From assembly GCF_000215085.1 (NCBI RefSeq), contig NC_015589.1, forward strand, positions 310,001-374,000: a DNA stretch of 64,000 bases, in the 5' to 3' direction. The notes beneath the pieces were generated by a model, which worked only from the letters and a program-made list of their open reading frames with translations, ran no database searches and was not told the DNA's origin. The stretch comes from Desulforamulus ruminis DSM 2154. Its GTDB lineage: Bacteria > Bacillota > Desulfotomaculia > Desulfotomaculales > Desulfotomaculaceae. A program made the translations under genes and the position numbers. Positions 2,512 through 18,641 of this stretch are shown one piece after another. Numbering within the stretch: position 1 is the stretch's first letter; each line of letters starts with the position of its first letter.

Positions 2512-2691
2512 ATGGCCAAGCTGAAGATCACACTGGTTCGCAGTCTTATCGGCAGGCCTGAGGCACAGCGGAAAGTTGTCCGCGCCCTGGGTTTAGGTAA
2601 GACCAACAGCGTTATCGAACAACAGGATACCCCCATCATTCGGGGTATGATCAATAAGGTTTCTCACCTGGTTAAGGTTGAGGAAGCCTAA
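2512..2691 (+). CDS. rpmD: 50S ribosomal protein L30
   Basis: A short gene of 59 codons plus stop, reading [20 protein letters not shown] and ending HLVKVEEA. The segment RSLIGR followed by [22 protein letters not shown] is the L30 signature. Its stop codon overlaps the AAGGAGG that serves rplO. The position between rpsE and rplO is invariant in this operon. Confidence 0.96.
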
Positions 2692-2704
2692 AGGAGGTGT
2701 ACCG

Positions 2705-3145
2705 GTGAAACTCTCTGAATTAAGGCCGGCTCCCGGAGCAAGAAGAAAGGCCACCCGTAAGGGTCAGGGTATTGGTTCCGGTTTAGGCAAGACTTCCGGT
2801 AAAGGCCACAAGGGTCAAAACGCCAGATCCGGCGGCGGCGTACGCCCCGGTTTTGAAGGCGGCCAAATGCCCATGCAGCGCCGGTTCCCCAAGAGGGGTT
2901 TTACGAACATATTTAGAAAGAACATCGTGGCTATTAATTTGGACCAACTGAATGTGTTTGAACCCGGCACGGAAGTAACTCCGGAGGTATTACTGACAGC
3001 AGGTTTGATCAAAAAGACTGGCGACGGTGTAAAGATTTTGGGCGATGGGATCATGGAAAAGGCTTTAACCGTAAAAGTACACGCCTTCAGCAAATCGGCA
3101 GTTGAGAAGATTACTGCTGCGGGCGGCAAAGCCGAGGTGATTTAA
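2705..3145 (+). CDS. rplO: 50S ribosomal protein L15
   Basis: L15 is recognised by its glycine- and basic-rich N-terminal extension ([20 protein letters not shown]), which threads into 23S rRNA, and the globular C-terminal domain. The GTG at 2705 follows AAGGAGGTG with good spacing and gives the family start [14 protein letters not shown] (146 residues). Reading the frame further upstream would run through the 3' end of rpmD and is rejected. Confidence 0.96.
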
Positions 3146-7387: not shown

Positions 7388-8335
7388 TTGTTGGAAATTG
7401 AGAAGCCAAAGATTGACATACTGGAACAGAATGAAGATAATACGTACGGTAAATTTATGGTAGAACCGCTGGAGAGAGGCTACGGGATCACCCTGGGCAA
7501 CTCTCTGCGCAGAATTCTACTTTCCTCCCTGCCTGGAGCTGCTGTTACCTCCGTCAAAATTGACGGAGTGCTGCATGAATTCAGTACTGTTCCAGGTATT
7601 CGGGAAGATGTTACTGACATTATCCTGAATCTGAAAAATCTTTGCCTTAAGATTCACAGCGACGAGGAGAAAGTTCTTCGGATTGAAGCGCAAACCGAAG
7701 GTCCCGTTACTGCCGGTGATATTATTCATGATGCCGATGTGGAGATTTTAAACCCTGATTTACATTTGGCAACCCTTGATACCGGTGGACGGTTATTTAT
7801 GGAAATTACCGTAAACAAAGGCCGTGGATATTCTTCTGCTGAGAAGAATAAAAAGGGTGAGCATATTATTGGGGTCATACCCGTCGACTCCGCATATACA
7901 CCGGTACGCAAAGTGAACTACGCCGTGGAGAATACCCGGGTAGGTCAGATTACCGACTATGACAAGCTCACTCTGGAGGTCTGGACCAACGGCAGTATCC
8001 GGCCTGATGAGGCGACCAGCCTGGCTGCCAAAATTTTAAGCGAACATTTAAGACTGTTCATCGGTTTAACCGAAACAGTCAATGATGTTGAAATTATGGT
8101 GGAAAAGGAAGAGGAACAAAAGGACAAGATCATGGAAATGACCATTGAAGAACTCGACTTGTCCGTACGCTCCTACAACTGCCTGAAAAGGGCTGGCATC
8201 AATACCGTTGAAGAACTGATCCAGCGTAACGAGGAAGACATGATGAAGGTTCGCAACCTGGGCAAAAAGTCACTGGAAGAAGTTGTCAACAAGTTGAACG
8301 AACTGGGCCTGTCTCTGAGGAAAGACGACGAGTAA
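7388..8335 (+). CDS. rpoA: RNA polymerase alpha subunit
   Basis: The 315-residue alpha subunit has the N-terminal dimerisation domain ([20 protein letters not shown] near residue 25) and, after a linker near residue 235, the C-terminal DNA- and activator-binding domain with helix-hairpin-helix segments ([28 protein letters not shown]). TTG at 7388 follows AAAGGAGGG; the family start MLEIEKPKI fits this codon. Confidence 0.98.
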
Positions 8336-8349
8336 GGGAGGGACGATTT

Positions 8350-8688
8350 GTGGGTTATCGCAGATTTGGTTTAACCACTGGACACAGAAAAGCTATGCTT
8401 AGAAATCTCGTTACCTCTTTATTCCGGGATGAACGGATTGAAACCACCGAACCCAGGGCTAAAGATGTACGCAGCATTGCTGAGAAGCTGGTTACCACTG
8501 CCAAAAAGGGTGATTTGGCTGCTCGCCGCCAGTGTTTAGAATATATCTACGAAGAAGAAGTAGTTAAAAAGCTTTTTGATTCCATCGCTCCCAAATATGC
8601 TGAACGCCAGGGCGGTTATACCCGTATTGTTAAGGTAGGCTATCGCCGGGGTGACGCAGCAGAAATGGTGCTGTTGGAACTGGTTTAA
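8350..8688 (+). CDS. rplQ: 50S ribosomal protein L17
   Basis: L17 (112 residues) begins [20 protein letters not shown] from a GTG at 8350 and closes the alpha operon. The segment [21 protein letters not shown] is characteristic. It is followed by terminator-like hairpins, then by the ECF transporter genes as in many Firmicutes. Confidence 0.98.
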
Positions 8689-8782
8689 ATCTTTATGGCA
8701 TTAAGAACTAGCGGAAACCCCCGGATGTGGTTTCCGTTTCGCCTTCTATTGTTCTGAAAGACAAAATGCCAAGTTATATCCT

Positions 8783-8830
8783 GCCCCGGGGTAACCGCAG
8801 AAGCTGTGGCGGGATGCCCCGGGGTTTCTT
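8783..8830 (+). terminator. Probable rho-independent terminator after rplQ
   Basis: Two copies of GCCCCGGGG (8783-8791 and 8816-8824) bracket an inner CCGCAG/CTGTGG stem and are followed by TTTCTT. A smaller hairpin, CGGAAACC/GGTTTCCG, lies just upstream at 8712-8736. The pair would end most transcription of the ribosomal operon before the ECF genes. Confidence 0.65.
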
Positions 8831-8890
8831 ATTATCAAAAGGGCTAAACTTTTAAACATGCCGGGACAGTTCATGGGTGAAGGGGAAAGC

Positions 8891-9721
8891 ATGAAAGACA
8901 TCATTATTTCTGTAAACAATTTGTTCTTTCAGTATCCGCAACAGGAGCAATGGGCACTGGAGGATGTTTGCCTGGATATTTATGCCGGTGAATTCTTGGT
9001 GCTGTTGGGACCCAATGGATCGGGGAAATCTACTCTGGCCCGGCATCTTAACGGCTTGCTTTTGCCTGCCCGAGGACAGGTGCTGGTGCATGGGTTATCC
9101 ACCGCCGATGAGCCGGCCCTTTGGGACATCCGGAAAAAGGTGGGCATGGTTTTTCAAAATCCCGACAACCAGTTGGTGGCGGCGCTGGTGGAGGAAGAGA
9201 TTGCTTTTGGTCTGGAAAATCTGGGTGTTTCACCGGATAATATCGGGGAGCAGATTGTAAAGATCAGCGGCAGGCTGGGTTTGCAGCATCTTTTATCCTC
9301 TCCGCCTCACCGGCTTTCCGGGGGCCAAAAGCAAAGGGTAGCCATTGCCTCGGTGCTGGCCCTGGAACCGGATGTGCTGGTGCTGGATGAACCCACCTCC
9401 ATGCTGGACCCGTCGGGGCGCAAGGATGTCCTGGAGGAAATTCTACGCCTCCGGGAGAGGGGGAAAACCATTGTTCTGGTGACCCATGACATGAATGAAG
9501 CCCTGCAGGCAGACAGAGTCCTGGTCTTGAATCAGGGCAAAATTTTTCTTTCAGGAAGTCCGGAAAAATGTTTTAGTCAGGTTGCAGAACTAAAAAAAAT
9601 TGGATTGGGAATTCCTCCTGCCGCCGAATTGGCAGGCCATTTAAGGCAGAGGGGATTCGGGCTGCCGGATTCCTTACTGCGTGTAGAGGATTGGATTGAA
9701 TATCTATGCGGGAGGTCATAA
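8891..9721 (+). CDS. ecfA1: ECF transporter ATPase EcfA1
   Basis: An ABC ATPase of the energy-coupling factor family, which powers uptake of vitamins and metal ions through exchangeable substrate-binding S components. Visible motifs are Walker A GPNGSGKST, signature LSGGQKQRVAIA, Walker B VLVLDEPTSMLDP and the switch histidine in VTHDM. ATG 8891 follows GAAGGGGA; an upstream in-frame ATG at 8858 would add 11 residues. The end overlaps ecfA2 by 16 bases, so the two are translationally coupled. No S component is in the window, consistent with a group II shared module. Confidence 0.93.
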   Translation: MKDIIISVNNLFFQYPQQEQWALEDVCLDIYAGEFLVLLGPNGSGKSTLARHLNGLLLPARGQVLVHGLSTADEPALWDIRKKVGMVFQNPDNQLVAALVEEEIAFGLENLGVSPDNIGEQIVKISGRLGLQHLLSSPPHRLSGGQKQRVAIASVLALEPDVLVLDEPTSMLDPSGRKDVLEEILRLRERGKTIVLVTHDMNEALQADRVLVLNQGKIFLSGSPEKCFSQVAELKKIGLGIPPAAELAGHLRQRGFGLPDSLLRVEDWIEYLCGRS

Positions 9722-10812: not shown

Positions 10813-11619
10813 ATGTCACTCTTTTCAAGCATTACCATTGGACAATATTACCCGGGCAATTCCCTGGTGCACCGTTTGGATCCCCGGGCGAAACTCTTGG
10901 CAGTGCCCCTGCTGGTGGCTGCCGGCCTTCTGGCTAAAGGACCGGCCGGTTATCTGGCGGCAGGCGTCCCTGTATTGATGGCGCTGGCAGTTTCTGGGGT
11001 CCCGGTGGCAGCCTTTTGGCGGGGCATGCGATTCCTGTGGGTTCTTTTGTTTATCAGCCTGATCTTTCACGCCCTGTCCTATCCGGGGCAAATTCTATGG
11101 CAGTGGGGACCGTTAGAGTTTACCCGTGAGGGACTGGTCTCCGGGGGAAAAGTGATTTACCGGTTGTCCGTGATTATTCTGGCGGGCATGCTGCTGACCA
11201 TGACCACCACCCCGGTTTTACTAACCGGGGGCTTGGAAAAACTGCTGCAGCCCTTTAAAAGATTCGGTCTGCCGGCCCATGAACTGGCCATGATGATGAC
11301 CATTGCCCTGCGCTTTATTCCCACCCTGCTGGAAGAGGCTGAAGCGGTAATGAAAGCCCAGCAGGCCAGGGGGGGCTCCATCGCCAGCGGTTCTGCCGGG
11401 CAAAGACTGAAGGCGGCGGTGGCCTTGCTGGTTCCCCTGCTGGCCGGTTCCCTGAGAAGGGCGGAGGATTTGGCCACGGCCATGGAGGCCCGGGGCTACC
11501 GGGGAGATGTGAAAAGGAGCAGTTTCAGGCAGTTTACCTACAGCTCATGGGATTTTGCGGTGCTTTTGTTTGTATTTTTTTCCCTGGTTATGGTGGTGAT
11601 GGACCGGTGGGTAATTTGA
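10813..11619 (+). CDS. ecfT: ECF transporter transmembrane subunit EcfT
   Basis: A 268-residue membrane protein that couples the two ECF ATPases to interchangeable S components. It has several hydrophobic segments (about residues 25-60, 70-90, 110-130 and near the C-terminus) and the paired coupling motifs around AQQARGG (near residue 180) and [10 protein letters not shown] (near residue 225). ATG 10813 follows CCGGAGG. Separation from ecfA2 by a 234-bp repeat array is unusual, since these genes normally abut. Confidence 0.92.
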
Positions 11620-12409: not shown

Positions 12410-12533
12410 TAATGCATTTCTTTGCGTGGACATTAGTTTTGGGGATCTCCTTAAAGATCATTGAAAACTACTTAATAGAATGACATAGTCAGGTTATATA
12501 AGGCATAAAAATTTAACATAATTTAGAAAAAGA

Positions 12534-12556
12534 AAATCGCCCTAAAAGGGCGATTT
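12534..12556 (+). terminator. Bidirectional terminator between truA and the minus-strand block
   Basis: AAATCGCCC and GGGCGATTT form a 9-bp stem with a 5-base loop, flanked by A-rich and T-rich sequence, so it could end transcription from truA and from the convergent gene at 12644-13348. Confidence 0.75.
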
Positions 12557-12643
12557 GTTATTTAAGAGCGGTAATATAAGCTCAATTCTCGTAACCAACA
12601 TATCAATCTGGGCTTTGATCTGTTTTAATGAATATTATTTTCG

Positions 12644-13348
12644 CTATGGTAAGCCAATGGGATTTCTAAAACTAATGGAAGATGTATCAGATACATATCC
12701 GTTTGTTTCAGATTCCGAATATCTGTATCTAGTACTATCTATAGTTCCATCATCAGAATATATGTTTCGACGAGAATTACTAGTACTCATTTTTACGTAG
12801 GTTCCACTTGTTGTAGTAAGGGTACTTTCAAAAAACTTGGCATTTTTGTAATAAGCAGCTGAAGGAATGTAGGGATTTCGATTTGCTGCGATACAACACT
12901 CTCTGTTGATGGCAGCTCCAGCGGCAAAAGCATTATAGGCATTTTGCGTAATATAAATATCAAAAATTCCTAGTACAGAGCCGCCAGTGGTTTCAATACT
13001 TGTCCTTAAATAATTAGGAGGTACAAGACTACTTTTAAGGACATAGGTTTGTCCGGCTGTTAAAGATACTACTTTTTCTTCGCCACTAAGGGGGTCTTGG
13101 GGATTTTTGGTTGCCTTATTAAGTGCATGGAAAGAAAGCATCCATTTCTTATTTCTGTAAATAACACCAATATCTATCCCGTAGGTGGATCCTTTATAAA
13201 AACCATGGAAGAACTCAGGGAAAATTCCATCATATTGACCTGAAGAATCACTTACACAGTCAAACTCAGAAGGAATTTGCAATTTACTGGCAATAGCTAC
13301 ATAGATTTGACTATTCGTACCTCGGTTGGGGACATGATAACCACCCAT
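12644..13348 (-). CDS. Uncharacterised serine/threonine-rich, probably beta-rich protein
   Basis: A 234-residue protein of unknown function. It starts MGGYHVPNRGTNSQIYVAI behind AAAGGAGT and shows no N-terminal signal peptide or membrane segment. The middle has alternating polar/hydrophobic stretches (GSTYGIDIGVIYRNKKW, GSVLGIFDIYITQ) suggesting a beta sandwich, and residues 175-225 are rich in Ser, Thr and Tyr. It faintly recalls YrpD-type Bacillus proteins, but I cannot confirm this. It is convergent with truA. Codon and base use are AT-richer than the flanking conserved genes. Confidence 0.6.
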   Translation of the reverse strand: MGGYHVPNRGTNSQIYVAIASKLQIPSEFDCVSDSSGQYDGIFPEFFHGFYKGSTYGIDIGVIYRNKKWMLSFHALNKATKNPQDPLSGEEKVVSLTAGQTYVLKSSLVPPNYLRTSIETTGGSVLGIFDIYITQNAYNAFAAGAAINRECCIAANRNPYIPSAAYYKNAKFFESTLTTTSGTYVKMSTSNSRRNIYSDDGTIDSTRYRYSESETNGYVSDTSSISFRNPIGLP

Positions 13349-13916
13349 TTTTTATTACTCCTTTCAAAATATAATTGTTTTTGCATCCGTTACTGGCCAG
13401 TAAGTTTTGCATCACATTCTTTATAGAGGAAAAAGGTACCCTAAATGACAACCAAAAAATTTTTTTATTAATTTAATTTTTTTGTAAAAGAATGTCCCCG
13501 AAAGATGTTTATACGGAATAATTCATAAGGTTTGTCGCCAGACTGTTTATATCAAAAAATGAATCCGGAAAAAATGGAGTATAAAATGAAAACTATCGTC
13601 AGCACGCCTGAACCTTTTGCTTCAATTAAAGGGTTTAGGATCTGACAAGGGAGTGGTATGATGATTTTAATATTGAGGCATGTATCTTATGATTGCATTT
13701 GCAACGCTCGTTGTTTTAATTATAAAAAGAAATAACCGCCCCTGATCAAGGTTTGCGGTTATTTCTAAATGAAGCTAACCGTTTCTGGTTAGATAACTTA
13801 GGAAGGGAGTGTGTCGAGCATATGCCCATTGCAAAACAAGGGGACAGGGATTATGTTTTTTAATAAGTCCCTCGAATTGTATTACAATACAGCAGCATGT
13901 TAAATTGCCTGATTGT
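13349..13916. other. AT-rich intergenic region with no convincing gene
   Basis: About 570 bases separate the unknown gene from the permease gene. Apart from the terminator hairpin near 13730-13766 and the ribosome binding site of the downstream minus-strand gene, I see only short unconvincing open frames. A segment GGGGACAGGGATTATG near 13842 resembles the kind of sequence found at the ends of small dispersed elements, but no partner is visible. Confidence 0.5.
13728..13766 (-). terminator. Terminator of the NCS2 permease gene
   Basis: A perfect 12-bp stem, AGAAATAACCGC paired with GCGGTTATTTCT. Read on the minus strand it is followed by TTTTTATAATT, which suits a rho-independent terminator about 150 bases beyond the permease stop codon. 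Confidence 0.75.
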
Positions 13917-15230
13917 CTATGGCTTTTTAAATACCTCGCTATTTCTTCTTCGATAAATAACATTTTCTAGGATTAAAACGGATAATACACCGATAACAAA
14001 GCCATTCCCCATAATGGGTCTTAGTGAACTAGGAAAGCTGTTTGCTATATTCGGGGGGAGGAAAGAAATGATTATACTTAGCATGAGAGGCAACCCCATA
14101 ATTAAACCATTTTCAAACTTGAATCCCCCGGTTGTGTTAAAGGCAACCAATAACCCCGAGGAAATTTGTGCACACATAATATAAATGAGTACGCTTCCCG
14201 TCACTGCCGAAGGAATGCTCCCGATAAAGGCAATTGTCGAGGGCAAAAATGAAAGCAGCAATAGCCCGAAAGCAGTGGGGATGAGAGTAAATCTAGAAGC
14301 TACACCGGTGGAGGCGATTACGCCGGGGCTTAAGGAAAAATTGACCGGTCCGATAACACCGAACAGCCCAGACAGAATGTTGCCCAATCCGGTAAATGAA
14401 ACACCTCTCGTAATCCGCTTTTCCATATTGTCCGGCCGGATGATTTCCCCAATGGATTGAATTGAACCCAGGTCATTAATGGACAAAGCTAAAAAGCAAA
14501 TGAGAAAAGAGATTAAAACACTAGGGTCTAGGGAAAAATCAAGGCTTACATGTCTAAAAAAACTGGAGATCGGGCTAAAATTCTGATGATAACTTATTCC
14601 GGTATACTGTGGGAAAAGGAGCATATAGAGCGCAGTTCCAATAATAACAGCCCAAATAATCAGGGTTGTCTTCCAAAGCCCCGTTAAACGCTGGTTGGCC
14701 CAGAACATACCAAGAACAAAAATAAAGACAAAACACAAATTTTGCACTGGAGCTACCTGCTGGGAAGCAAAAATTAAATTGATAATCATAGGTGTAAGCG
14801 TAAGTGCAATTAAAATCAGAATGGTTGCTATCACCTGCGGTGTAAAAAGCTTCTTCACTTTGGCAAATAATCCGGTAGCACTTAAGAGCAAAAGAATCAT
14901 ACCGCTAATTAAAATGGAAGAATAAATGGTACTGGTGCTGCTCCCCTGGCTTGCGGCAATACCCACCAGTAATACTGCTGCGGGACCTATAATTAATGGT
15001 AATCGATGTCCCCACAGCACTTGTGCCAAGAGGGAAACTGCCGATACAAAAAACAGTTTTTGCAGATAAACCACTTGATCCAATGGATCGCTAAAGTGCA
15101 GCCCCACGATGGCTTTGCCAATAATAATGATAATTGGGACGATAATGGCCAGCCATTGTAATCCAAATAACAATAGCTCTGTCAAAGGGGGAATATCATC
15201 TAGACCATATTTAAAATTTATTTTATTCAA
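13917..15230 (-). CDS. NCS2-family nucleobase permease (uracil/xanthine type)
   Basis: A 437-residue integral membrane protein with about 12-14 hydrophobic segments. The N-terminal YGLDDIPPLTELLLFGLQW closely follows the NCS2 opening motif, and the family core is visible in FLALSINDLGSIQSIGE and GVIGPVNFSLSPGVIASTGVASR. NCS2 proteins import uracil, xanthine or uric acid with protons; the substrate cannot be read here. The start is a TTG at 15230 with GGGAGG about 10 bases upstream. No purine riboswitch was recognised in its leader. It is part of the AT-rich minus-strand block. Confidence 0.82.
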   Translation of the reverse strand: MNKINFKYGLDDIPPLTELLLFGLQWLAIIVPIIIIIGKAIVGLHFSDPLDQVVYLQKLFFVSAVSLLAQVLWGHRLPLIIGPAAVLLVGIAASQGSSTSTIYSSILISGMILLLLSATGLFAKVKKLFTPQVIATILILIALTLTPMIINLIFASQQVAPVQNLCFVFIFVLGMFWANQRLTGLWKTTLIIWAVIIGTALYMLLFPQYTGISYHQNFSPISSFFRHVSLDFSLDPSVLISFLICFLALSINDLGSIQSIGEIIRPDNMEKRITRGVSFTGLGNILSGLFGVIGPVNFSLSPGVIASTGVASRFTLIPTAFGLLLLSFLPSTIAFIGSIPSAVTGSVLIYIMCAQISSGLLVAFNTTGGFKFENGLIMGLPLMLSIIISFLPPNIANSFPSSLRPIMGNGFVIGVLSVLILENVIYRRRNSEVFKKP

Positions 15231-15393
15231 TATTTAAGAACCTCCCAATTAGTATTAAAATTAATTCGATATATTATAAGAAATTCCTGGAGATGAAATA
15301 TTTACATAAATTTGGATCTAGCCTAATCTCTGACCTTGAGTAGATTAAATATGACAACGTTACTTAAAACCCTTGAGAGAACGCAAAACGGAA

Positions 15394-15447
15394 TGTCAGC
15401 CTTCCTGGACTTTTTAGTTGCAACTAAAAAGTCCAGGAAGGCTGACA
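15394..15447. repeat. Perfect 54-bp palindrome without loop
   Basis: The arm TGTCAGCCTTCCTGGACTTT continues to TTAGTTG at 15420 and is immediately followed, with no spacer, by its exact reverse complement through 15447. The symmetry stops abruptly at both ends. It lies between the 3' end of the SLH-domain gene and the 5' end of the permease gene. No T-run follows in either direction, so a simple terminator role is doubtful. Confidence 0.9.
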
Positions 15448-15513
15448 ATGGTACAGAATATAAAGAGTACATCTTTATGGCTATCTTTAAAATCAATTTG
15501 CTGGACACGTATA

Positions 15514-16983
15514 CTATTGAATTGAATTTAAAATAACTGTGGCTGCTTCGGCTCGAGTGGCATTTTCCTTAGGTTTAAAGGTACCATCAGGATAACCCTT
15601 CATCATATTGTGTTCGATTGCAATTGTAACCGATTCTTTTGCCCATGTCGAAATATCTTTACCATCCGTAATGCTAAATTCCTGGAAGGAAAAGTCAAGT
15701 TTTTTTGCTTTTACCATAATAACAGCCATTTCTTCCCGGGTAATAAGTTCATCCGGCCTGAAAGTCCCGTCTTGATAACCGTTGAGAATTCCGCAGGCAT
15801 TGGCTGTGGTGATTGCATCTTTTGCCCAGTGGTTTTGTATATCCATAAATACTTTTCCCTGTACCGGCTCAAGTTTAAGTGCTTTTACCAAAATCGTAAC
15901 GAATTCAGCCCTGGTTATCGGATGATCCGGACGGAAGCAGCCATCTGGGTAGCCAGAAACAAAACCATTGGTTACTAATTTTTTAATCGTATCTTTTGCC
16001 CAATGATTGGAAGTATCCATAAATATTTCGGATAGAGGGTCTTCCTGGTCACTCTTATAGCACCAAACACCGTCGAAGGTTCCGACATAAACAATTCCAT
16101 GATAATCGAATAAACAGTTAATCTGCGGCATTTCCTCCATTGTTCCATTTGCCGCTCCTAACCGCGACCAATCGGTCTGGTCCCAGACCCATACATCGCT
16201 GCCAAGTACTCCTGCCAACAGCTTGCCGTTAAAACTAAGCAGGCAAGACACGTGAGCACCACCTGATAAGGTAGGTAATGGGGTTTTCCCGGTTACAGGT
16301 TTCCAAACATTATTTTCTAAGATCCGTACGCCCTGGTTCATTAATCCTATAAACAACTTATTATCCACTGTTGCTAGACTTGAAACACCGTATCCCGCTG
16401 CAGATAACTCGCCTGTCTCCGACCAAATATCTCCATTCCATGCCCATACCTTATTAGGATGAATTGCATAAAGAACACCATTTGTACTAGTCAGACCGCA
16501 ACTTGTATTTGTAGGAGGTAAGTTGCCTAGCATAGACCACATAAAGCCGTTCCATACATAGACTCCACTACCCGTTCCGGCATAAAGCATCCCATTATGG
16601 ACGACAATTTGCGAGTCATTTGATAAATTACCTACCATCGACCATGTCTGTCCATCCCACTTCCAAACGCCGACAGCGGTTCCTGCGTATAATGAACCGT
16701 TATAAGCAGTAATATTTCTAGTATATACTGCGTCACCTAATAGTCCTTGGGGACCCCCTACCTGGGACCAGGTTTTTTCTTTCAGCACCCAAACACCATT
16801 GGAACCTGTTCCGGCATAAAGTAGCCCATTGTGGACAGTTAGGCTTACAACATTGGCATTATCTCCCGTAAGTGGAGGTTGCCCCACCTGTTGCCATATT
16901 TCATTATTCATGGCATAAACCGGAGATATAATACACCAGCTCAACAATAGAGTAGTGATCCAGGTTAGAAAAATTTTCCTCAT
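15514..16983 (-). CDS. Secreted surface protein with propeller-like repeats and three SLH domains
   Basis: A 489-residue exported protein. Residues 1-25 form a signal peptide (basic MRKIF, hydrophobic core, SPVYA cleavage region). Residues 30-325 contain about seven degenerate repeats with NGxLYAGTxxGVWxW and a following W-S-x-V/L-G, suggestive of a beta propeller. The C-terminal part holds three S-layer homology domains (NHWAKDTIKKLV, then NHWAKDAITTANA, then TWAKESVTIAIE; each followed by GYxDGxFxP and ITRAE-like motifs), which anchor proteins to pyruvylated wall polymers. ATG 16983 is preferred over GTG 16992 because AAGGACGG then sits 8 bases upstream. Confidence 0.88.
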   Translation of the reverse strand: MRKIFLTWITTLLLSWCIISPVYAMNNEIWQQVGQPPLTGDNANVVSLTVHNGLLYAGTGSNGVWVLKEKTWSQVGGPQGLLGDAVYTRNITAYNGSLYAGTAVGVWKWDGQTWSMVGNLSNDSQIVVHNGMLYAGTGSGVYVWNGFMWSMLGNLPPTNTSCGLTSTNGVLYAIHPNKVWAWNGDIWSETGELSAAGYGVSSLATVDNKLFIGLMNQGVRILENNVWKPVTGKTPLPTLSGGAHVSCLLSFNGKLLAGVLGSDVWVWDQTDWSRLGAANGTMEEMPQINCLFDYHGIVYVGTFDGVWCYKSDQEDPLSEIFMDTSNHWAKDTIKKLVTNGFVSGYPDGCFRPDHPITRAEFVTILVKALKLEPVQGKVFMDIQNHWAKDAITTANACGILNGYQDGTFRPDELITREEMAVIMVKAKKLDFSFQEFSITDGKDISTWAKESVTIAIEHNMMKGYPDGTFKPKENATRAEAATVILNSIQ

Positions 16984-17124
16984 GAAGAACACCGTCCTTG
17001 TTCTTATTTTGTTGTGCTATAATATAAGATCTCTCATTAATATAAGACTTTCTTAATCTAAAAAAGGTTTCGCATTAAAATACATTTTTATAAATTAATT
17101 AAAATTACGTTTGAATAAATTATT

Positions 17125-17544
17125 TTAAGAACGTTTTTGTTTACTTTGGTCATCTGTTTGAATTTTTAATTTTTCTAAAGTTCTTACCAGTAAAGGTGGT
17201 AATGGAACTCCCATCTTACCTAAATTTTCTAGAATACTTAGACCTTCATTGGTTATGTAGAACCAAATAGTCATCGTTCGAAGTAGGGGATCTTCCAAAC
17301 CCGTAGTCATATCAAGAAGGTGGGCAAGAGCGACCACGAAAAAAATACCTACCTTTCTCATAATACCTCTGAAACCAATTTCACTATTAAGGCTATTATT
17401 TATAACTGAAGATGCTACTCCTGTAATGTAATCAAATAAAACCAAAATAATTAAGGTTCGAATAATTAAGTCAAACCCTCCCAAAAAATAGGTGCCTAGG
17501 GTGCCAGACGTCGCTATAATAAAACTAATCACCTTATTATCCAT
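17125..17544 (-). CDS. Holin of the TcdE/phage holin 4 family
   Basis: A 139-residue small membrane protein with three or four hydrophobic segments (about residues 5-25, 27-48, 63-80 and 85-105). The segment FDYITGVASSVIN followed by GFRGIMRKVGIF and then YITNEGLSILENLGKMGVPLPP is the signature of the toxin-secretion/phage lysis holin family (TcdE, UviB-like relatives). No endolysin gene accompanies it. It lies 15 bases downstream of the sigma-factor-like gene, clearly in one transcript. In related systems such a holin releases a large toxin or bacteriocin; here the cargo is unknown. Confidence 0.82.
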   Translation of the reverse strand: MDNKVISFIIATSGTLGTYFLGGFDLIIRTLIILVLFDYITGVASSVINNSLNSEIGFRGIMRKVGIFFVVALAHLLDMTTGLEDPLLRTMTIWFYITNEGLSILENLGKMGVPLPPLLVRTLEKLKIQTDDQSKQKRS

Positions 17545-17559
17545 TTTTTCTCCTTAATT

Positions 17560-18072
17560 TTAAGAACTATAGTATACTTTTTGAAGTTTATCTTTTAAAA
17601 TATTTAGAGCTTTTTTTTGAGTTTTGAATACTGCTTGCCTAGAGATATTTAGTATACTGGCGGTTTTGGAATATGAATAATCTAATAATATCCTATATTC
17701 AATAACTTCTCGTTGCTTTTGAGATAAGGACTTTAGTGCATTTTTTATATCAATTTTGATATCTAAATCAATATTGTTTTCGGAGATGTACTTTAACTTA
17801 TCTAATTCTGTAGCAACTTCCTTTTGACTAATTAACTCTTGCTTCTTATTCAGTCTTATAAATTCATTTTTTATTGATTTTGCTATATAACTAGTGATTA
17901 CTCTCTCGTTTTCAGTATTAGGAATTTTCTTAATTAATTCTAATAAAAATATTGTTAAATCACTTTCAGCCTCTTCATAAAATAACCTCTTGCTATACTT
18001 TTTAATAAGGGGCTGAAATTTTTCAATTATTAGAAGAATATTTGAATTATTTTTGAAATTACTTTTAAACAT
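17560..18072 (-). CDS. Small alternative sigma factor, TcdR/BotR/UviA-like
   Basis: A 170-residue protein with a sigma region 2-like N-terminal half (LIKKYSKRLFYEEAESDLTI near residue 22) and a region 4 helix-turn-helix (LSQKQREVIEYRILLDYSYS then TASILNISRQAVFKTQKKAL near residues 115-155). Very high lysine and isoleucine content and AT-rich codons differ from the housekeeping genes. The domain pairing and the adjacent holin gene match the group 5 sigma factors that drive toxin or bacteriocin genes in clostridia (TcdR with TcdE, UviA with UviB). Its regulon cannot be read from sequence. A phage late regulator is an alternative. Confidence 0.7.
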   Translation of the reverse strand: MFKSNFKNNSNILLIIEKFQPLIKKYSKRLFYEEAESDLTIFLLELIKKIPNTENERVITSYIAKSIKNEFIRLNKKQELISQKEVATELDKLKYISENNIDLDIKIDIKNALKSLSQKQREVIEYRILLDYSYSKTASILNISRQAVFKTQKKALNILKDKLQKVYYSS

Positions 18073-18084
18073 AAATACATAATC

Positions 18085-18106
18085 ACCTCTTTTTAATAAA
18101 AGAGGT
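18085..18106 (-). promoter_or_regulatory. Hairpin covering the ribosome binding site of the sigma factor gene
   Basis: On the minus strand ACCTCTTTT is followed by a short AT loop and then AAAAAGAGGTGA. The 3' arm contains the AGAGGTGA that would serve the ATG at 18072, about 13 bases away. If the stem forms in the mRNA it would mask the ribosome binding site. A terminator reading on the plus strand is also possible (AGAGGTTTTG follows). Confidence 0.5.
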
Positions 18107-18612
18107 TTTGTATGTTTGTTCTGTTAACCACATCGACAAATCACCACAAAATATTACAATTAGAGGCATGCATCTTCCTAGTTTCTTTGGAGTACTTATT
18201 GGATTATCTATGTATCGATACTAGTTAGCTCAAGACCATTTTTAGTAATCTTGGTATTTCTTGATTTTTAGAAAAGAATTCAAATCTCCAAAATTTGCAG
18301 AAATAAATTTCAGTTAAGATCAATATAGAAGAAACTTATGGAAGAAAAAATATGCACCAACTAAATCTATAAAAATAATTTAAATTTTATAAATATCTTA
18401 TGTTTAGCAATCTTTGTTTTCTATTTATAATGATTTGTTTTAAAATATTAAAAGTCTATCAAGGCTGTAGACATAAGCGATACTCCTTTTTTGTCACTTT
18501 TTATAAATGGTATATTTGTGTTCCGCGTTGTTTGCCTAAATATGATCCTTTGATCAAATGCAAAATCCTAAAAAGCTCATAGAGAAAAACCGAACAAGTC
18601 ATGGCTTTCGGC
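18107..18612. other. AT-rich intergenic region upstream of rplM
   Basis: About 500 bases with strongly AT-rich sequence. It should carry the promoter of the minus-strand sigma/holin genes, but I could not pick a convincing one. Open frames here, such as one at 18400-18582, lack ribosome binding sites and resemble nothing known. Confidence 0.5.
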
Positions 18613-18641
18613 TTGACACCTGATTTCCCATGGATTAAAAT
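18613..18641 (+). promoter_or_regulatory. Promoter of rplM-rpsI
   Basis: TTGACA at 18613-18618 and TAAAAT at 18636-18641 are separated by 17 bases, a near-consensus housekeeping promoter about 80 bases upstream of rplM. It would let rplM-rpsI be expressed despite the block separating them from truA. The roughly 70-base leader is GC-rich and may fold, but I do not identify a known L13 leader. Confidence 0.75.

What the first reader, a model, noticed from the sequence alone, without database searches (positions are those of the whole stretch)
17125..18072. TcdR/UviA-like sigma factor paired with a TcdE-type holin, without toxin or endolysin
A 170-residue sigma-like protein and a holin of the TcdE family are co-transcribed. 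In clostridia this pairing controls and releases large toxins or bacteriocins. Here no endolysin or toxin is present, but the same strand carries a secreted SLH-anchored propeller protein and an unknown protein in the same block. This may be an undescribed holin-dependent export or lysis-release module with its own sigma factor.
Basis: partly seen in the sequence, partly recalled or inferred. Interest (0 to 1): 0.66.

Follow-up and report, generated by a model that had tools for sequence, protein, structure and literature searches.

The report
Sigma factor, holin and leaderless cargo
A small DNA island in an anaerobic bacterium carries its own gene switch, a membrane pore protein and a protein with no export signal that is probably released through the pore, which suggests that the arrangement clostridia use to release toxins also serves harmless-looking environmental bacteria.

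Summary
The pair is real: a 170-aa sigma factor (17560-18072, -) with the SRQ motif of TcdR-related group 5, and 15 nt later a TcdE-type holin (17125-17544, -; PF05105). They lie in a 6.2-kb low-GC island between truA and rplM, a gap of 0.12-0.4 kb in six of eight congeners. It is not a prophage. In the window, sigma and cargo share GGTTNNCA-N17-CTCTWTWA, found only at these two places in the 3.97-Mb genome. The holin is TcdE-type in one relative, BhlA/UviB-type in the other. Of 40 named sigma loci, 21 have a holin within 1 kb and 17 the motif upstream of the sigma gene (shuffles 0.15). Best reading: a group-5 sigma drives itself, a holin and a leaderless protein that leaves through the holin. 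Wall crossing and cargo function are unknown. New variant of a known kind; SLH propeller and permease are probably bystanders.

The parts
17560..18072 (-). group-5 (TcdR/UviA-like) sigma factor, 170 aa, SRQ motif at residues 144-146
   Evidence: TIGR02937 1.1e-16, Sigma70_r4 6.9e-9; full-length relatives of about 30-40% identity; SRQ read in the translation, criterion from PMC4031146
17125..17544 (-). TcdE-type holin, 139 aa
   Evidence: PF05105 2.4e-40, TIGR01593 8.5e-29, phrog_199 lysis/holin 3.6e-28; 15 nt after the sigma gene
12644..13348 (-). leaderless cargo protein 'GYHV', 234 aa, no Pfam/NCBIfam/PHROG family
   Evidence: no family; 43% to L122:9810-10484, E 7e-50; 33% to L147; N-terminal hydropathy 1.17 against 1.96 for the SLH protein
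18099..18127 (-). sigma-gene promoter candidate TTAACA-N17-CTCTTT
   Evidence: its -10 also lies in a 9-bp inverted repeat with the ribosome-binding site
13423..13451 (-). cargo promoter candidate TTGTCA-N17-CTCTAT, ending 74 nt before the cargo ATG
   Evidence: shares GGTTNNCA-N17-CTCTWTWA with the sigma promoter, 2 matches in the whole genome, reversed control 0; TTNNCA-N17-CTCTWT 2 matches in the window, 0.33 expected
13390..13403 (.). leader palindrome TTACTGGCCAGTAA; its core ACTGGCCAGT is identical in the leader of the L122 relative
12534..12556 (.). two-way terminator-like hairpin downstream of the cargo gene
12410..18640 (.). acquired low-GC island (0.36 against 0.51-0.53) between truA and rplM

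Best explanation
The island carries a self-contained release module. The group-5 sigma factor transcribes its own operon (sigma plus holin) from TTAACA-N17-CTCTTT and, from a matching promoter 4.6 kb away, the leaderless 234-aa protein. The protein accumulates in the cytoplasm without a signal peptide and leaves through the TcdE-type holin, as proposed for large clostridial toxins and Bcn5. Shown by sequence: the sigma and holin families, the island, the cargo's relatives beside sigma and holin in two other bacteria, and promoter likeness. Inferred: that the sigma uses these promoters, that the holin passes the protein, and that the cargo acts outside the cell (a jelly-roll, lectin-like fold is only weakly indicated). 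How it crosses the wall without a linked endolysin is open; a chromosomal autolysin is the simplest guess.
For: Sigma and holin families over cut-offs; SRQ motif. Same pair in G043, G072 (two loci), Syntrophomonas, Desulfosporosinus, Lutispora and others, 8 of 8 tested holins being PF05105. Cargo relatives beside sigma and holin in L122 (PF05105 7e-41; motif TTTACA-N16-CTCTTT) and L147 (Holin_BhlA 1e-25; motif TTTACA-N17-GTCTTT, the same 17-nt spacing as in the window and as in L147's two other copies). Own genome: GGTTNNCA-N17-CTCTWTWA only at the two window promoters, reversed control 0. Same palindrome in the leaders of window and L122 cargo. Holins: 21 in 79.4 kb within 1 kb of the 40 sigmas, 10 in 464.6 kb further out. 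Motif with at most 1 mismatch upstream of 17 of 40 sigma genes, shuffles 0.15. Of 26 motif-driven proteins of 100 aa or more, one has a clearly hydrophobic N-terminus.
Against: The strict motif is absent from this genome: both window promoters depart from TTTACA-N16-CTCTTT. TTWACA-N16/17-CTCTTT is no commoner than its reversed control (6 against 9), and the GGTTNNCA pattern was drawn up after seeing the two sites. By plain likeness to the sigma promoter the cargo site is one of six equal second-best sites in the window. The window sigma's -10 lies in an inverted repeat with the ribosome-binding site. Cargo and holin are 3.8 kb apart with two other genes between. L122 and L147 were found by searching for the sigma, so the linkage is partly ascertained. 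L147's sigma falls in the same weakly supported group as the window's, so the two are not clearly independent. The two further relatives (G254) have no such motif; one lies near a LydA-type holin and another sigma, the other near a sigma-like regulator. The L147 cargo copy is frame-broken. 13 of 40 sigma loci show no TcdE or BhlA holin. Relatives' cargos are often wall hydrolases, which this one is not known to be.
Confidence: 0.62

Rival explanations
1. Lytic release: the sigma is switched on in few cells, the holin kills them together with an autolysin, and the cargo is set free by lysis (colicin-like), not passed through the membrane.
For: Holins of this class can support lysis (UviB and TcdE in E. 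coli, PMC4597214, passages); in related loci the same promoter drives wall hydrolases.
Against: No endolysin in the island; none seen next to the pair in L074 and L075 by reading the open frames (only part of them searched for families). Published TcdE-dependent secretion without lysis (PMC9527704, passages).
Confidence: 0.2
2. The sigma-holin pair exports or regulates a wall hydrolase encoded elsewhere; the 234-aa protein is a passenger of the island.
For: Hydrolases are common cargo in relatives.
Against: The cargo's relatives stand in two other such loci with the motif; of the five other own-genome matches of TTWACA-N16/17-CTCTTT none stands in front of a recognisable hydrolase gene on its strand, by reading the frames.
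Confidence: 0.09
3. Remnant of a prophage: late regulator plus holin.
For: PHROG matches to a phage sigma (phrog_1740) and a holin (phrog_199).
Against: No other phage gene recognised in 6.2 kb; no relatives in 2.9 million viral contigs by pattern-based scans; 3 of 50,697 phage records match, unverified faecal scaffolds, two of which branch with Gemmiger on the sigma tree, the third not placed.
Confidence: 0.04
4. The SLH-anchored propeller protein is the exported product.
For: It lies directly downstream of the holin on the same strand.
Against: Its N-terminus is signal-peptide-like by eye and hydropathy (1.96), no good group-5-like promoter was found upstream, and its propeller part has no match at 1e-4 in 63 related loci; its SLH repeats match three of them (L085, L086, L089), all split-sigma loci.
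Confidence: 0.03

Closest known systems
UviA-UviB-Bcn5 bacteriocin locus (C. perfringens pIP404)
   Same: Small group-5 sigma, a holin, a leaderless product, related promoters; relatives of this module even carry SH3 plus Peptidase_M14 proteins, the Bcn5 domain pair (PMC9527704 section 6 read)
   Different: Holin is TcdE-type, not BhlA/UviB; no endolysin; cargo has neither SH3 nor M14
TcdR-TcdE toxin loci (large clostridial toxins)
   Same: Group-5 sigma plus a holin of TcdE type (TIGR01593); product without signal peptide
   Different: No large toxin, no endolysin fragment found; a 234-aa unrelated protein instead; an environmental anaerobe by inference
SigO-RsoA split sigma of Bacillus subtilis (recalled; only a search listing seen)
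   Same: Related modules in several genomes have sigma regions 2 and 4 on two genes, some beside a small membrane protein
   Different: The window sigma is one protein; no homology to SigO or RsoA was tested

Membership tests
TcdR-related group-5 sigma factors | small sigma-70 family protein with regions 2 and 4 | tested here: met
   170 aa; TIGR02937 matches residues 15-163 over its cut-off; Sigma70_r4 over its cut-off; Pfam region-2 models not hit
TcdR-related group-5 sigma factors | SRQ motif in region 4.2 (marker proposed in PMC4031146) | tested here: met
   residues 144-146 are SRQ; criterion seen as passages; 7 of 9 rows of A3 have it
TcdR-related group-5 sigma factors | promoters with -35 TTTACA | tested here: inconclusive
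   TTAACA and TTGTCA in the window; TTTACA-N16-CTCTTT in relatives, 9 of 11 class-wide matches in the three genomes with full-length relatives, none in the window genome
TcdR-related group-5 sigma factors | functional exchange with other group-5 sigmas | not testable with these tools
   needs an experiment
TcdE-type holins (PF05105/TIGR01593) | match over the curated cut-offs | tested here: met
   137.7 bits (cut-off 22.2) and 100.1 bits (cut-off 40.2)
UviA-UviB-Bcn5 locus | BhlA-family holin | tested here: not met
   the window holin is PF05105, no BhlA hit
UviA-UviB-Bcn5 locus | endolysin gene in the locus | tested here: not met
   none among the five island proteins
UviA-UviB-Bcn5 locus | product with SH3b and M14 carboxypeptidase domains | tested here: not met
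   no Pfam match in the 234-aa protein
Large-clostridial-toxin locus | large toxin gene beside sigma and holin | tested here: not met
   no open frame over 492 aa in the island
Prophage lysis module | phage structural or replication genes around it, relatives in phages | tested here: not met
   core genes on both sides; no viral relatives in the scans
Holin-dependent protein export | holin needed for release of the protein without lysis | not testable with these tools
   needs an experiment

The most novel reading that the evidence does not exclude
Group-5 sigma factors and holins form a widespread, modular export system of non-pathogenic Clostridia in which interchangeable leaderless cargos (wall hydrolases, Bcn5-like proteins, and new, possibly lectin-like families such as the window's GYHV protein) are plugged in with their own promoter and a cargo-specific leader palindrome; toxin loci of pathogens would be one late use of it.
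Probability: 0.4. Interest if true: 0.82.

Novelty: new variant of a known kind. Interest (0 to 1): 0.64.

Why it matters
How holins move folded, signal-less proteins is an open question studied mostly in toxin-producing pathogens. This locus, with a 234-aa non-toxin-like cargo, no linked endolysin and a compact sigma-holin operon, would be a safe minimal system to test holin-dependent export. The related loci suggest that the toxin-release arrangement is broader than the toxins, and they tie a new protein family to export by its genetic context.

Tried and rejected
The SLH propeller as cargo: rejected (signal-peptide-like start, no good shared promoter, propeller part without match in 63 related loci). 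The permease likewise has no match there. A first alignment of the window cargo with the leaderless 'EYAK' proteins of G043/G072 (A2) looked promising by eye, but profile comparison gave E 0.33: no sequence kinship shown. Prophage origin: rejected. A single-protein scan of genome contigs with the window sigma found nothing; the nine-row alignment found 40 loci. Cargo relatives in phage and plasmid records: none.

Structure: the AlphaFold model of the cargo from three rows is poor (mean pLDDT 48, parts of 18-142 better); the best PDB matches are jelly-roll sandwiches (tailspike, laminin/neurexin-type, legume lectins, alginate lyases, and receptor-binding domains that use the same common fold), none with E at or below 0.001. 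Taken only as a hint of a lectin-like fold.

Leader palindromes as 5' RNA hairpins: z-scores from -1.85 to +1.68 in 10 leaders, so not supported in general. Rfam: no match in the island.

Full report
What is there. The two genes are at the stated places: sigma 17560-18072 and holin 17125-17544, both on the minus strand, 15 nt apart. The sigma protein matches TIGR02937 (1.1e-16) and Sigma70_r4 (6.9e-9) over their cut-offs; the BotR equivalog matches only at 2e-4, far under its cut-off. Residues 144-146 are SRQ, a marker proposed for TcdR-related group-5 sigmas in PMC4031146 (passages seen). The holin matches PF05105 (2.4e-40) and TIGR01593 'toxin secretion/phage lysis holin' (8.5e-29).

Where it sits. 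The genes belong to a block of about 6.2 kb with GC 0.36 (flanks 0.51 and 0.53) between truA and rplM. Of the 8 congeners searched, rplM was found on the truA locus in 7. By the match coordinates the gap is about 0.12-0.4 kb in six (in one of these the locus stops inside rplM) and 1.4 kb in G001 (locus also stops inside rplM); in G007 it could not be measured. The G001 gap holds a sigma region-4 remnant (Sigma70_r4 5.9e-5, just under the cut-off). So the block was gained in this lineage (inference). The organism is in the order of G030, whose contig has the length of a Pelotomaculum terephthalicicum contig (78,190 bases); that makes it a Desulfotomaculum-type anaerobe, by inference. The genome has four PF05105 holins; the other three lie beside Amidase_3 genes, one of them truncated. 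Only the window one has a sigma factor and no amidase beside it.

Not a phage. Apart from the holin and the sigma no phage gene was recognised in the block; the SLH repeats of the propeller protein also hit some phage families. Three scans of 2.9 million viral contigs, which depend on short peptide patterns, found no relative of the sigma or the cargo. Among 50,697 phage records three match the sigma, all unverified faecal scaffolds; two of the three were placed on the sigma tree and branch with Gemmiger contigs.

The same pair elsewhere. In 60 relatives only G030 and G043 gave full-length sigma matches below 1e-10 to the single protein (39% and 31%). With a three-row profile on 113 genomes of the class 41 had some match at 1e-6, most of them partial (region 4 alone, or region 2 alone); full-length relatives other than the query were in G030, G043 and G072. 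G043 and G072 (twice, once with a frame-broken sigma) have sigma followed at once by a PF05105 holin, and G020 has a sigma remnant with the same holin. G030 itself has a SleB-type hydrolase there instead of a holin. A scan of 84,980 named genomes with a nine-row alignment gave 40 loci, among them Syntrophomonas, Desulfosporosinus, Lutispora, Clostridium, Tissierella, Tepidibacter, Jeotgalibacillus and Gemmiger. They are not all independent: two Desulfosporosinus loci lie on one contig, L117 is G030, L141 is the plasmid of L041. With profiles that I built from loci including some of these, a TcdE- or BhlA-type holin was found in 27 of 40, within 1 kb of the sigma in 21 of 40; Pfam confirmed 8 of 8 TcdE-type and 2 of 2 BhlA-type holins tested beside such sigmas, besides the one of L125. 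Holin density is 21 in 79.4 kb within 1 kb and 10 in 464.6 kb further out. On the tree of 44 sigmas the holin type changes several times; the window sigma sits on a long, unsure branch, outside the well-supported clade that holds L117-L123.

The promoter. Upstream of the sigma genes in G043 and G072 I saw TTTACA-N16-CTCTTT. TTTACA is the published -35 of TcdR-related sigmas (PMC4031146, PMC5311115, PMC4597214, passages); that CTCTTT resembles the -10 of TcdR promoters is recalled, from no call. In 113 class genomes GTTTACA-N16-CTCTTTA has 11 matches in 5 genomes; 9 of the 11 are in the three genomes with full-length relatives; the reversed control has 4; the window genome has none. In the 40 named loci 17 sigma upstream regions hold the motif with at most one mismatch; 20 shuffled sets gave a mean of 0.15 and at most 1; of 433 other genes in the same loci 19 have it. 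The count is 19 of 40 if L146 and L148, missed by the window used there, are added. Genes downstream of other copies of the motif (0 or 1 mismatch) include many leaderless wall enzymes or wall binders: SleB-type hydrolase, CHAP, M23 with SH3, Peptidase_M14 with SH3 or choline-binding repeats, Amidase_2 with ricin-type lectin, phage lysozyme, PG_binding proteins, a Rv2525c-like glycoside hydrolase, and BhlA or TcdE holins themselves. SH3 plus M14 is the domain pair of Bcn5 bacteriocins (PMC9527704, section 6 read). Of 26 motif-driven proteins of 100 aa or more one (L117, 136 aa) has a clearly hydrophobic N-terminus (2.58; the next is 1.77) by a simple hydropathy measure. Some of these 26 are probably chance motif matches.

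The cargo of the window. The 234-aa protein at 12644-13348 has no family match and no marked hydrophobic N-terminus (1.17). A relative lies in L122 (Clostridia bacterium SM3-B6.2; 43% identity over 230 columns, E 7e-50), where the order is sigma 7998-8552, PF05105 holin 8554-8967 (7e-41), a short frame that by eye looks like a broken SH3 protein but matches no family, then the relative under TTTACA-N16-CTCTTT. A second lies in L147 (Sedimentibacter LM3-B4.1; 33%): sigma 7974-8504, BhlA holin 8540-8743 (1e-25), then the relative under TTTACA-N17-GTCTTT; L147 has two more copies with the same 17-nt spacing, before the sigma gene (GTCCTT) and before a 119-aa frame at 10918. The C-terminal part of the L147 relative is in another frame. 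Among 398 genomes drawn from the phylum only the window genome and G254 have the family. G254 has two distant copies, one in a locus with a LydA-type holin (6.5e-13) and a different sigma, the other near a sigma-like regulator; no TcdR-type motif with at most one mismatch was found there. No other genome of the class has it (1 of 113), and no plasmid or phage record.

The window promoters. Upstream of the sigma gene: TTAACA-N17-CTCTTT (18127-18099). Upstream of the cargo: TTGTCA-N17-CTCTAT (13451-13423). Both read TGGTTNNCA-N17-CTCTWTWA, with the 17-nt spacing of L147. GGTTNNCA-N17-CTCTWTWA occurs exactly twice in the 3.97-Mb genome, at these two places, and the reversed control not at all. 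The looser TTNNCA-N17-CTCTWT occurs twice in the window, 0.33 expected, 4 of 100 shuffles reaching two. The pattern was drawn up after seeing the two sites, and by plain similarity to the sigma promoter the cargo site is only one of six equal second-best sites in the window, so this is support, not proof. TTWACA-N16/17-CTCTTT alone is not enriched in the genome (6 against 9 in the control).

A leader palindrome. Between promoter and ribosome-binding site of the cargo gene lies TTACTGGCCAGTAA; the L122 relative has ACTGGCCAGT at nearly the same distance although the proteins are only 43% identical. Other motif-driven cargo leaders carry other perfect palindromes: TGAATTAGCTAATTCA before M14 proteins, TGAACGTTCA before Gemmiger proteins, TAGCCGGCTA before EYAK proteins. 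A palindrome of 10 nt or more with G or C occurs in 19 of 35 cargo leaders, the window's included (shuffle mean 1.3, maximum 6 in 100), in 0 of 21 sigma leaders and 0 of 4 holin leaders, which are shorter. Folding does not single these leaders out (z -1.85 to +1.68). The role is unknown; a binding site for a symmetric protein seems likelier to me than an RNA hairpin.

How it probably works. The sigma factor raises its own operon and so the holin, and the separate cargo gene. The cargo, made without signal peptide, leaves through the holin. Steps shown are gene content, linkage and promoter likeness; use of the promoters, passage through the holin and the role outside are inferred. The fold search hints at a jelly-roll, lectin-like core, on a poor model.

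What is known and new. Sigma, holin, endolysin and leaderless product in one locus are described for large clostridial toxins and Bcn5 (PMC9527704, passages and section 6), and a UviB holin in place of TcdE is described in a toxin-locus variant (PMC4597214, passages). Ten full-text searches, of which only two named environmental genera and both gave no paper, showed in their listings no account of such loci there or of this cargo family; the library holds only open-licence papers and I read listings, not all papers. I therefore file the sigma with group 5 and the holin with PF05105, but not the locus with Bcn5 or toxin loci, because defining parts are absent.

Noticed in passing
L123:10085-10645 +; L079, L080, L082, L083, L084; L017: Relatives with sigma region 2 and region 4 on two genes, some with a 108-aa membrane protein nearby and a hydrolase after them (SleB-type, M15, a glucosaminidase-like one under its cut-off); in L123 the stop of the first gene lies inside the apparent ribosome-binding site of the second. 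They recall SigO-RsoA of Bacillus.
   Followed up: partly
L082:4351-16340 -: Tandem copies of membrane protein, split sigma and cargo (two complete, a third set partly seen) in G072, with different cargos.
   Followed up: no
window 13390-13403 and leaders in L118, L121, L122, L125, L138, L140, L146, L148, L074, L075: Cargo-specific perfect palindromes just downstream of group-5-type promoters (19 of 35 cargo leaders against 0 of 21 sigma leaders).
   Followed up: partly
window 15394-15447: Perfect inverted repeat of 27 nt per arm without a spacer between the permease and SLH genes.
   Followed up: no
L074:12072-12734 +, L075:3335-4000 -: A second leaderless cargo family ('EYAK', about 220 aa, 34% identical to each other); the L075 gene and a shorter L074 copy (2512-3006) are under TTTACA-N16-GTCTTT, with a decayed copy under the strict motif at L075:9544; no such motif was seen before L074:12072.
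   Followed up: partly
L094:1105-1305 -: A sigma region-4 remnant in the truA-rplM gap of congener G001, as if this site takes up such insertions repeatedly.
   Followed up: partly
L161, L162 (G254): Distant cargo relatives: one in a locus with a LydA-type holin, another kind of sigma and a leaderless-looking 375-aa protein, the other near a sigma-like regulator.
   Followed up: partly
L147:10731-10759 and 10918-11277 +: A third TTTACA-N17-GTCTTT copy in L147, before a 119-aa frame of unknown function.
   Followed up: no
window 13917-15230 -: NCS2-type purine/pyrimidine permease inside the island, with no match in 63 related loci.
   Followed up: partly
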